Source: Terriglobia bacterium (GTDB taxonomy: Bacteria > Acidobacteriota > Terriglobia > Terriglobales > Acidobacteriaceae). Taken from it: DNA of 64,000 nucleotides. Positions 17,036 through 52,460 of this stretch are shown piece after piece. Each line of letters begins with the position of its first letter. Position 1 is the stretch's first letter. The stretch covers positions 1 to 64,000 of the forward strand of contig JAIQGL010000003.1 in assembly GCA_020072585.1 (NCBI GenBank). Reading direction: 5' to 3'. Position numbers and translations under genes: made by a program. Below the pieces are notes generated by a model. It worked only from the letters and a program-made list of their open reading frames with translations, was not told the DNA's origin and did no database searches.

Positions 17036-17995
17036 TTAGGAACGCGCCACGTTCAGCATCATCAAGGCAAAAAGGAGCGGTAGATAAAGCACACTGGCTT
17101 GCAGCAACTGCCGGGCAAACTTTCTGGAGTCCGGTGATGTAGTGGGCAGATTGGTCCGCGCCAGTCTGAAAACAAACCACAGAAAGGCCAGTCCCAGCGC
17201 CAACGCGCCAAACAAATAGATCTTGCCGGTCATCCGCAGCAGCGTCGGGACCAGACTCACGGAAATGAGCGTGGAACAATACGTCAGCATCTGGCGGATC
17301 ACGCTGTGTCCAGCCTTGTCCACCACGGGAAGCATTTTGATGCCGGCGGCTTCGTAGTCCTCGCGGTACATCCACGCAATGGCCTGAAAATGCGGAAACT
17401 GCCAGAAGAACACGATCAGAAAAAGAAAGATCGCTTCAATTTCCATCCTCCCGCGAATCGCGGTCCAGCCCAGCAGTGGCGGCATGGCCCCCGGGAAGGC
17501 GCCTACAAAAGTTGATATCGGCGAAACACGCTTGAGCGGCGTATAAAACGCCAGATATGTTGCGGCGGTTGAAAATGCCAGCACGCCGGTGAGGACGTTC
17601 GTCGTCAGCGCCAGATACAAGGGGCCAAGGACCGTTGCCAGGATGCCGGCGGTTATGCCGGTGGCCAGGCTCATTCTGCCCGCAGGCAGTGGACGGTTGC
17701 GCGTGCGCCGCATCAGCGCGTCGATCTTATGTTCCAGGACCTCATTCAGCGCCGCGGAGCCTGCGCATGTCACGCCGATTCCAACCAGAGCGTTGAGCAA
17801 TGTCCACGTCAGCGATGTAACTCCGCTCTTGGCCGCACCCATGTAATAGCCGGCCCAGGCCGTCATTACAATCAGTGACGTCACGCGGACCTTGAACAAC
17901 TGGAGATAATCGCCGAAAAGAGAACTCTTTTTGAGTACGACCGGGGCCGCTGACGCCCCTGTTTTCTGGTCCAGTCTCTGCGGGACGGAGCTCAT
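17036..17995 (-). CDS. ctaB: Protoheme IX farnesyltransferase (heme O synthase)
   Basis: UbiA-family enzyme adding a farnesyl group to heme b to make heme O. The 319-residue sequence has about nine helices, the two Asp-rich motifs (EVLEHKIDALMRRTRNRPLPAGR and FYTPLKRVSPISTFVGAFPGAMPPLLGW) and WQFPHFQAIAWMYREDYEAAGIKMLP. Its ATG overlaps the stop of ctaA by four bases, so the two heme-modifying steps are co-translated. Confidence 0.95.
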   Translation of the reverse strand: MSSVPQRLDQKTGASAAPVVLKKSSLFGDYLQLFKVRVTSLIVMTAWAGYYMGAAKSGVTSLTWTLLNALVGIGVTCAGSAALNEVLEHKIDALMRRTRNRPLPAGRMSLATGITAGILATVLGPLYLALTTNVLTGVLAFSTAATYLAFYTPLKRVSPISTFVGAFPGAMPPLLGWTAIRGRMEIEAIFLFLIVFFWQFPHFQAIAWMYREDYEAAGIKMLPVVDKAGHSVIRQMLTYCSTLISVSLVPTLLRMTGKIYLFGALALGLAFLWFVFRLARTNLPTTSPDSRKFARQLLQASVLYLPLLFALMMLNVARS

Positions 17996-51382: not shown

Positions 51383-51475
51383 TTTCATAGCCTTTAATCC
51401 CATCTAAGAATGACAGGAGAGCACACCTGGTGAAAGTGATATCCATCACGTTCGTAAGCCCCCGGCGGTGAGGGT

Positions 51476-51521
51476 TTGACCCTGATCAGTGTTATCCGTG
51501 TTTTATCAGCGATAAGGTTCG
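51476..51521 (-). repeat. Dispersed repeat, copy 4
   Basis: The reverse complement reads GAACCTTATCGCTGATAAAA then CACGGATAACACTGATCAGGG, matching the family at 747-795, 908-955 and 1631-1668. Confidence 0.55.
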
Positions 51522-51550
51522 CCCCTTGAGTACTTAAGTTCGACCTAAAA

Positions 51551-51568
51551 TTTAAAGTGCGCTTTAAA
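51551..51568. promoter_or_regulatory. Inverted repeat before microprotein gene 1
   Basis: TTTAAAG-TGCG-CTTTAAA is a 7-bp inverted repeat about 18 bp upstream of the TTGACA box at 51586, where an operator or AT-rich activating element might sit. Confidence 0.4.
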
Positions 51569-51585
51569 AAATTGTGCAAAAAGGC

Positions 51586-51615
51586 TTGACAGAGCCCCTG
51601 CCGCGGTCGCATTCT
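51586..51615 (+). promoter_or_regulatory. Probable sigma70-type promoter of microprotein gene 1
   Basis: A perfect TTGACA at 51586-51591 is followed at 18 bp by CATTCT (51610-51615), a weak -10. The text GCTTGACAGAGCCC resembles that of the promoter of the paralogous gene (CCTTGACAGCCCAT). Confidence 0.5.
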
Positions 51616-51665
51616 GATTTTGCATTCTCAAATCGATTACAGAAGTTTTTATTGGGAGAATTGTC

Positions 51666-51788
51666 TTGAGAATGCACCGACGGAAACTCACCCTTCGCAA
51701 GCTTCACATCCTCATTGTCGACATGATTCTTTTGACCATAGCGCTCATCGAGGGCGTCAAATATGTCCTTTACCTCATCAGGCAATGA
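51666..51788 (+). CDS. Membrane microprotein, paralogue 1
   Basis: A 40-codon frame beginning TTG at 51666 (or ATG at 51672, 38 residues). It reads LRMHRRKLTLRKLHILIVDM then ILLTIALIEGVKYVLYLIRQ: a basic N-terminus and one hydrophobic helix. GGGAG at 51654 lies seven bases before the TTG. Its C-terminal block LIEGVKYVLYLI is nearly that of the second microprotein (LIEGVKFVIFII) 400 bp away, which argues strongly for coding. No named family is recognised; small membrane regulator or type I toxin-like peptide are possibilities. Confidence 0.65.
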   Translation: MRMHRRKLTLRKLHILIVDMILLTIALIEGVKYVLYLIRQ

Positions 51789-51988
51789 GAGCGGTTGTAT
51801 CTAGGGCTATAAAAGGTTTCCACAAGATGCACAGCGCAGTGTGCAACAAATATAAGCGATTTGTGCTATTAAAGAAGTGGGTTTGCCGTTGATTAAGGAG
51901 CAGACCCTTGACCCTCCATTTTTTGAGCAGGACCTTCACGACAATTTGTTGGTGGTGCGTAGAGTGGCACGATAGCTACACAACCCCC

Positions 51989-52017
51989 TTGACAGCCCAT
52001 TTTTCTACTGACATATT
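51989..52017 (+). promoter_or_regulatory. Probable sigma70-type promoter of microprotein gene 2
   Basis: TTGACA (51989-51994) and CATATT (52012-52017) are spaced by 17 bp. The predicted transcript has a leader of about 55 nt before the strong ribosome site at 52064. Confidence 0.6.
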
Positions 52018-52079
52018 CTTCCCGAGGTCAAAGCGCCTCCAAGGACAGATTGAATTTTGTTCTAAGGAGGATTCAAGCT

Positions 52080-52178
52080 TTGCTCCGCAATCCCGATAAA
52101 TTTATTCTGAAGTGGCTGCTCGCTCTCCTCCTGCTTATTGAGGGCGTGAAATTCGTCATTTTCATCATCTCGCATTGA
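52080..52178 (+). CDS. Membrane microprotein, paralogue 2
   Basis: A 32-residue frame from TTG at 52080 to TGA at 52178, MLRNPDKFILKWLLALLLLI then EGVKFVIFIISH. AAGGAGG at 52064-52070 is a near-perfect ribosome site nine bases before the TTG. It shares the LIEGVK-[FY]-V-[IL]-[FY]-[IL]-I block with the frame at 51666-51788. One transmembrane helix covers most of the chain. It has its own promoter. Function unknown. Confidence 0.7.
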   Translation: MLRNPDKFILKWLLALLLLIEGVKFVIFIISH

Positions 52179-52460
52179 AATGAGCCTTTTTAGCTAGCGA
52201 TAGGCCGGAGACATGCCTTGCTAAACTCAAGAGGTACGAGTGCTTGGACACCGACTTTTAAGGCAAGGTAACGCTTCAAAAGGTTTTGGGACAGCTTGTC
52301 CCGAAGAGCGGCCATTCATGGAGGAGAGAGAAATCCGCGAGACGTCCACAACTTCATGGGACAGTGGCGTGCTCTTTAAAAAACCGAATTTCACAGCAAG
52401 ATTCGGAACGCGCGATTGTCTGGCGAAGCATATATATGAATGCAGGTGCCAGGAGGGGTT

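What the first reader, a model, noticed from the sequence alone, without database searches (positions are those of the whole stretch)
51551..52178. Two paralogous membrane microproteins with their own promoters
Two short frames 400 bp apart share LIEGVK-[YF]-V-[LI]-[YF]-[LI]-I at their C-termini but little nucleotide identity elsewhere, a sign of selection on protein. Each has TTGACA upstream in a similar context (CTTGACAG-CC) and a ribosome site (GGGAG; AAGGAGG), and both may start with TTG. A 7-bp inverted repeat precedes the first. They are too short for standard gene calling. They could be membrane regulators, stress peptides or type I toxin-like peptides; no antisense partner was identified by eye.
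Basis: partly seen in the sequence, partly recalled or inferred. Interest (0 to 1): 0.75.

Follow-up and report, generated by a model that had tools for sequence, protein, structure and literature searches.

The report
Phage-shared tandem membrane microprotein cassette
A short stretch of this soil bacterium's chromosome appears to encode two tiny membrane proteins related to ones found in bacterial viruses, behind RNA hairpins that may hold back their production, and their job, perhaps to disturb or guard the cell membrane, is untested.

Summary
ORF1 (51666-51788, 40 aa) and ORF2 (52080-52178, 32 aa) share LIEGVK[YF]V[LI][YF][LI]I; both are hydrophobic and start with TTG. ORF1 is coding by evolution: sense dN/dS 0.13-0.22 in three pairs of relatives, antisense 1.4-2.5. 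Relatives were found in one same-genus genome and two IMG/VR viral contigs, one with terminase and capsid genes. The unit is a cassette of about 700 bp: TTGACA box, two or three peptide units, a TGCAC-N8-GTGCA dyad with an extended -10-like box before unit 2, and a conserved non-coding block. Seven leaders share a hairpin that pairs the Shine-Dalgarno sequence, with two compensatory changes. The window holds a third leader (51861-51914) whose peptide is lost. No library searched gave a credible family. Most likely it is a virus-shared cassette of throttled membrane-active peptides, working like a type I toxin or an exclusion peptide. No antisense antitoxin was found, so it is not filed as type I. 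A control weakens the 'lock' reading: 11 ordinary genes here hide their Shine-Dalgarno sites about as much.

The parts
51586..51591 (+). TTGACA box of unit 1 (CTTGACAG context)
   Evidence: sequence; CTTGACAG also before unit 1 in L049 (452-457) and L050 (4022-4017, minus); not scored by the promoter scan
51621..51676 (+). 11-bp inverted repeat TGCATTCTCAA ... TTGAGAATGCA covering the ORF1 start codon, with the ribosome site in the loop
   Evidence: fold z -2.93, 1 of 200 shuffles folds as well; predicted start unpaired 0.05 but Shine-Dalgarno unpaired 0.88 at 37 C
51666..51788 (+). ORF1, 40-aa predicted single-helix membrane peptide, TTG start
   Evidence: relatives in G006 and L049; sense dN/dS 0.13 and 0.18 with these two; helix 10-39, mean pLDDT 85.4
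51828..51845 (+). TGCAC-N8-GTGCA dyad, possible operator or activator site
   Evidence: 1 in window, 0.08 expected; among loci held only at the unit-2 position of window, L049 and L050
51864..51872 (+). TGCTATTAA, extended -10-like box; TATTAA begins 21 nt after the dyad
   Evidence: TG[CT]TATTAA in window, G006, L049 unit B and L050 unit 2; as promoter: inference
51879..51907 (+). unit-2 leader hairpin GGGTTTGC-CGTTGATTAAGGA-GCAGACCC; no peptide of this family follows it here
   Evidence: 91% identical over 55 bp to the leader of the G006 peptide; model R1 45.4 bits; two of its pairs do not form; fold z -1.21, 29 of 200 shuffles
51989..52017 (+). TTGACA-17-CATATT promoter-like site of ORF2
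   Evidence: 1 found, 1.0 expected
52036..52070 (+). hairpin pairing CCTCC (52036-52040) with the Shine-Dalgarno sequence of ORF2 (AAGGAGG 52064-52070)
   Evidence: fold z -1.24, 21 of 200 shuffles fold as well: weak
52080..52178 (+). ORF2, 32-aa hydrophobic peptide, TTG start
   Evidence: best 19-residue hydropathy 2.53
52188..52275 (+). conserved non-coding block downstream of the cassette
   Evidence: 93% over 29 nt with L051 and 76% over 80 nt with L060; 83% over 182 nt between the two viral contigs; no Rfam match at gathering score

Best explanation
The locus is a compact cassette of about 700 bp, shared with viral contigs, in an Acidobacteriota chromosome between an M48 peptidase gene and an Oxygenase-NA gene. 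It makes 31-40-residue peptides that each form one membrane helix with a Glu-x-x-Lys (once Lys-x-x-Gln) pair inside the hydrophobic stretch. Shown: sense-strand protein selection on ORF1 and its two closest relatives; shared ancestry of leaders, peptides and downstream block with two viral contigs. Moderately supported: a conserved hairpin that pairs the Shine-Dalgarno sequence. Inferred: a sigma-70-like promoter drives the first unit; the dyad plus extended -10 is a regulated promoter for unit 2; the hairpins and the TTG starts keep yield low until the promoter is induced or the hairpin is opened; the peptides then insert into the inner membrane and change its permeability or block another phage. 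It thus works like a type I toxin such as TisB, or like an exclusion peptide, without a demonstrated RNA antitoxin.
For: Relatives: G006 E 3.5e-15; viral contig L049, 76% identity; viral contig L050, found by the leader pattern and again by profile A4. Codon pattern: 17 of 28, 20 of 32 and 22 of 39 changes at third positions. Leader: 93.5% of 77 cells paired, 64.9% or less when slid; two pairs with a change on both sides (13 of 500 shuffles reach that); covariation score reached by 10 of 500 shuffles. In L050 unit 3 the overlapping reading frame changes non-conservatively while the pairing is kept. Single folds beat shuffles well for L049A (1 of 200) and L050 unit 2 (0 of 200). Dyad, TATTAA and AAGGAG spacing pattern: only the two known contigs in the viral collection. 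Terminase and major head protein on L051; YopX and TrwB-like genes on L050. Of the window, only 51632-52275 and one weak stretch (17221-17325, E 2.7e-4) matched the viral DNA compared. AlphaFold2 gives helix 10-39.
Against: No expression data. Shine-Dalgarno pairing is not unusual here: 11 ordinary window genes have a median of 0.33 unpaired, against 0.18-0.43 for seven of nine units at 37 C; L050 unit 3 is 0.05, and ORF1 is 0.88 with its start paired instead. Several leader folds are ordinary against shuffles (29, 21, 21 of 200; 8, 75, 16). The number of pair types is no higher than in shuffles (384 of 500), and both two-sided changes come from one sequence. The cassette is rare: strong scores only for G000 and G006 among 398 family genomes. 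The window's unit-2 peptide is lost, which fits decay as well as use. No antitoxin RNA was found; the downstream block is not complementary to the leaders.
Confidence: 0.5

Rival explanations
1. Superinfection-exclusion or immunity peptides: the virus, and later the host, keeps them to stop DNA entry or lysis by related phages.
For: Viral neighbourhood with YopX, exonuclease and primase genes; presence in two chromosomes where I recognised no viral gene beside it (two neighbours domain-searched in the window; G006 contig read by eye); purifying selection on ORF1.
Against: No PADLOC hit and no credible PHROGs hit; no phage challenge data; only two viral contigs found, so a target phage is unknown.
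Confidence: 0.22
2. Regulatory microproteins that bind a host membrane protein (as KdpF or MgtR do; recalled, not tested).
For: Recurrent Glu-Lys pair and fixed C-terminal length; in G006 the nearest gene downstream looks like a P-type ATPase (identified by eye, no domain search).
Against: The neighbours differ in the window (M48 peptidase, Oxygenase-NA) and in the viral contigs.
Confidence: 0.13
3. Viral relic: a piece of viral DNA decaying in the chromosome, no longer in use.
For: Unit-2 peptide lost and two leader pairs broken in the window copy; no other clear match to the viral DNA compared.
Against: ORF1 keeps its frame and a low dN/dS to the viral and G006 copies, though this counts changes on all branches, not the window branch alone.
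Confidence: 0.15
4. FourU-type RNA thermometer switching on heat-induced membrane peptides.
For: UUUU opposite AGGA in four of the seven leaders aligned, not in the window's; a validated fourU element precedes blyA in the B. subtilis prophage SPbeta (PMC10586365, part 1 of 3 read). Modelled exposure rises with temperature in L050 unit 3 (0.00 to 0.47, 10-60 C).
Against: In seven of nine units modelled Shine-Dalgarno exposure rises by at most 0.15 from 10 to 60 C; in ORF1 it rises from 0.28 to 0.88 while the start codon closes (0.63 to 0.06). No Rfam match for these leaders at gathering score.
Confidence: 0.05

Closest known systems
TisB / tisB-istR1 of E. coli (type I toxin)
   Same: Tiny membrane peptide; ribosome site hidden in mRNA structure; regulated promoter (PMC7708055, part 1 of 6 read).
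   Different: No toxin family match; tandem paralogous units; no antisense RNA found; the dyad was not seen by eye upstream of the host's own lexA; shared with viral contigs.
FourU RNA thermometer of blyA, prophage SPbeta
   Same: Phage leader in which U-rich sequence pairs with the Shine-Dalgarno sequence (PMC10586365, part 1 of 3 read).
   Different: Here the stem is 9-11 bp and in most units is not predicted to melt with heat; the product is a membrane peptide, not an autolysin.
Phage small proteins (review PMC11323111)
   Same: Sub-100-aa proteins of phages acting on the host.
   Different: The four passages seen describe no such peptide with a hairpin leader; the rest of the review was not read.

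Membership tests
Type I toxin-antitoxin | toxin under about 60 aa with one hydrophobic membrane helix | tested here: met
   7 peptides of 31-40 aa, best 19-residue hydropathy 1.91-2.53; helix 10-39 predicted for ORF1
Type I toxin-antitoxin | antisense or trans RNA antitoxin pairing with the toxin mRNA | tested here: inconclusive
   no minus-strand promoter-like site in 51400-52450, one minus-strand terminator-like site at chance level; downstream block not complementary to the leaders, 16 comparisons, z -1.20 to 1.95; RNA data needed
Type I toxin-antitoxin | growth arrest on overexpression | not testable with these tools
   needs a bench test
TisB | sequence family membership | tested here: not met
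   no toxin family among the Pfam and NCBIfam hits of 7 peptides; that these libraries hold a TisB model is recalled
TisB | LexA control | tested here: inconclusive
   the dyad was not seen upstream of this genome's own lexA; the host LexA box itself was not determined
FourU RNA thermometer | four U opposite the Shine-Dalgarno sequence | tested here: inconclusive
   4 of the 7 leaders aligned have it, the window's does not
FourU RNA thermometer | opening in the growth temperature range | tested here: not met
   modelled exposure rises by at most 0.15 over 10-60 C in seven of nine units; no Rfam match for these leaders
Superinfection-exclusion peptide | blocks a second phage | not testable with these tools
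   no PADLOC hit, no credible PHROGs hit

The most novel reading that the evidence does not exclude
A new kind of mobile cassette: tandem membrane peptides, each behind its own hairpin leader, with a class-II-like activator dyad before the second unit and a conserved non-coding RNA downstream, exchanged between viruses and Acidobacteriota chromosomes and used in phage-phage or phage-host conflict without any antisense antitoxin.
Probability: 0.25. Interest if true: 0.72.

Novelty: new variant of a known kind. Interest (0 to 1): 0.52.

Why it matters
This locus gives a defined, testable cassette: a peptide family with no credible match in the libraries searched, a leader motif specific enough to find a second viral contig by itself, and a dyad that could lead to the regulator. 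It also shows a virus-shared module in a host chromosome with protein-level selection on its first peptide.

Tried and rejected
Thermometer reading: rejected as the main idea because modelled exposure hardly changes in seven of nine units. LexA operator: not supported. Antisense strand as the real gene: its frame is open in the window, L049 and G006, but antisense dN/dS is 1.4-2.5. Leader as a conserved peptide (GLLLIKEQT frame, indels of 3 nt): not excluded everywhere, but L050 unit 3 changes it to SLELKEWT while keeping the pairs. Downstream block as an antitoxin RNA against the leaders: no signal in 16 comparisons. Leader-like hits in eight other genomes (E 0.001-0.21): read; seven are not followed by a peptide of this kind, the eighth (L069) ends 9 nt after the hairpin and cannot be judged. 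Further viruses through the exonuclease and primase: only the same two contigs. The exonuclease was not found in 329 family genomes (the tool warns that an empty answer shows nothing). CTTTTGATTAAGGAGC in IMG/VR: 14 further contigs, none followed by such a peptide in the 170 nt or less read; R1 scores there at most 20.8 bits. RGTACGAGTGCTTGSMC of the downstream block: 9 contigs, 7 unrelated by eye. Weak profile hits (best E 0.003) were set aside by frame length and partial coverage; of these only L048 (G788) was read. Synteny in the genus: only partial matches of the flanks on separate contigs, so no empty site could be shown.

Full report
What is there. The two frames exist as described. ORF1 is MRMHRRKLTLRKLHILIVDMILLTIALIEGVKYVLYLIRQ, ORF2 MLRNPDKFILKWLLALLLLIEGVKFVIFIISH. 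In the own genome (6.9 Mb, 74 contigs) the profile of the two finds only themselves and two short matches at E 4.4 and 8.8. They lie between an M48 peptidase gene on the minus strand and an Oxygenase-NA gene.

Is it coding. The profile found one strong relative among 61 genomes, in G006 of the same genus (E 3.5e-15; 12 other genomes had matches only at E 0.27-0.97). The same contig is DAHUXR010000171.1, an Acidobacteriaceae MAG, and was the only hit in the genome-contig collection. In 398 family genomes G000 and G006 scored strongly and six more at E 0.004-0.04. Order (3 of 397 at E 0.01 or better: G000, G006 and G156 at 0.004) and phylum (2 of 396: G000 and G788 at 0.003 with a stop inside) added nothing strong; the samples overlap. 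A wider 7-row profile gave 11 of 329 family genomes at E 0.05 or better, strong only for G000 and G006. Between ORF1, the G006 peptide and the viral peptide L049A, sense dN/dS is 0.13, 0.18 and 0.22; the antisense frame gives 1.4-2.5, and in the two shifted frames pS is below pN in all six comparisons. ORF2 has no close relative of its own; its case rests on the shared block.

Virus link. IMG/VR contig IMGVR_UViG_3300046812_000824 (34.7 kb) holds a 40-aa relative and, 201 bp on, a 31-aa paralogue. Its genes include a terminase large subunit and a major head protein by PHROGs. A leader pattern found a second contig, IMGVR_UViG_3300036827_000361 (39.4 kb), with three units in a row, of which two encode such peptides. 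It carries YopX, an exonuclease, a primase, a TrwB-like gene and a Replic_Relax match below its cut-off; in the part held I saw no capsid gene, so its viral nature rests on the collection. Exonuclease and primase of the two contigs are 66% and 70% identical. Named phage and plasmid collections gave no match. Comparing the window with viral DNA (13.9 kb of the first contig, 12.1 kb of the second), matches fall in 51632-52275, plus one weak hit at 17221-17325 (E 2.7e-4).

Architecture. In the viral contigs the order is a YopX gene (domain match in L050; in L049 similar by eye), the CTTGACAG box, unit 1, dyad, extended -10-like box, unit 2, in L050 unit 3, a conserved non-coding block, then exonuclease and, on the other strand, primase. 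The window keeps the box, unit 1, dyad, extended -10, the unit-2 leader without its peptide, a second CTTGACAG box, ORF2, and the block. The unit-2 leader in the window is 91% identical over 55 bp to the leader directly before the G006 peptide, more than the 77% over 113 bp of the peptide gene itself. The dyad TGCAC-N8-GTGCA occurs once in the window (0.08 expected) and, in the loci held, only at this position in window, L049 and L050; G006 has the extended -10 but no dyad. The gapped pattern of dyad, TATTAA and AAGGAG hits only the two contigs in the viral collection. Its centre lies roughly 42 bp upstream of the inferred start, where class II activators bind; that is inference.

Leader hairpin. 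Seven leaders align. A stem of 11 pairs covers the Shine-Dalgarno sequence: 93.5% of 77 cells pair, 64.9% or less when slid. Two pairs change on both sides, both in L050 unit 3, and one position has three pair types. 10 of 500 shuffles reach the covariation score and 13 of 500 the number of two-sided pairs, but the count of pair types is ordinary (384 of 500) and the +1 slide also gives one two-sided pair. Seven related sequences are few, so this is moderate evidence. The window's own unit-2 leader breaks two of the pairs. ORF1 does not have this leader but has an 11-bp stem over its start; ORF2 may pair CCTCC with its Shine-Dalgarno sequence (weak). Fold tests of single leaders are mixed: 1, 29, 21 and 21 of 200 shuffles do as well for ORF1, window unit 2, ORF2 and G006; 1, 8, 0, 75 and 16 for L049A, L049B, L050 unit 2, unit 3 and unit 1. 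Against over-reading: 11 ordinary genes in the window with a Shine-Dalgarno match of 5 or more have a median of 0.33 unpaired, like seven of the nine units (0.18-0.43).

Function. The seven peptides are 31-40 aa with one hydrophobic stretch; ORF1 is predicted as one helix, residues 10-39. Pfam, PHROGs, NCBIfam, PADLOC and PDB sequence searches gave no credible family (best a single-member NCBIfam hit at E 0.013). The best commitment is a membrane-active, throttled peptide cassette shared with viruses, working like TisB (whose mRNA also hides its ribosome site; PMC7708055, part 1 of 6 read) or like an exclusion peptide. Direction of transfer was not tested.

Literature. Seven searches of the held library listed no paper that by title and abstract start describes this cassette; this covers only those terms, the listed papers and that library. 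I read part 1 of PMC7708055 and of PMC10586365 and four passages of PMC11323111; the rest I saw only as listings.

Noticed in passing
window 51481-51519: Short repeat (ATCAGTGTTATCCGTGTTTTATCAGCG type) with six other matches at 84-92% identity in the same genome, outside the cassette.
   Followed up: no
L049 3404-3538 minus; L050 1-831: A further small hydrophobic frame (IIFIIEVGKFVAGKLNK end) in one viral contig, resembling the IEGVKFV block by eye; L050 has a different small hydrophobic frame in the corresponding region.
   Followed up: partly
L068 and L073, 1388-1528 minus: A leader-like hairpin (GTTTGC...GCAGAC) stands directly before a SAM riboswitch (RF00162) in two other family genomes; a similar hairpin stands in L069 at a contig end.
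   Followed up: partly
L050 (IMGVR_UViG_3300036827_000361): Type IV coupling-protein-like gene and a sub-threshold Replic_Relax match beside phage-type genes, suggesting a phage-plasmid or conjugative element.
   Followed up: no
window 51564-51785 minus, with L049 and L012 counterparts: Antisense frame stays open and looks similar in all three, but its dN/dS is above 1, so it is probably a shadow of the sense gene.
   Followed up: yes
L061 1440-1500: Upstream of this genome's lexA: GTTCGTACTGCACAATTTGTTGGACAGTTCG, a possible LexA site (by eye).
   Followed up: no
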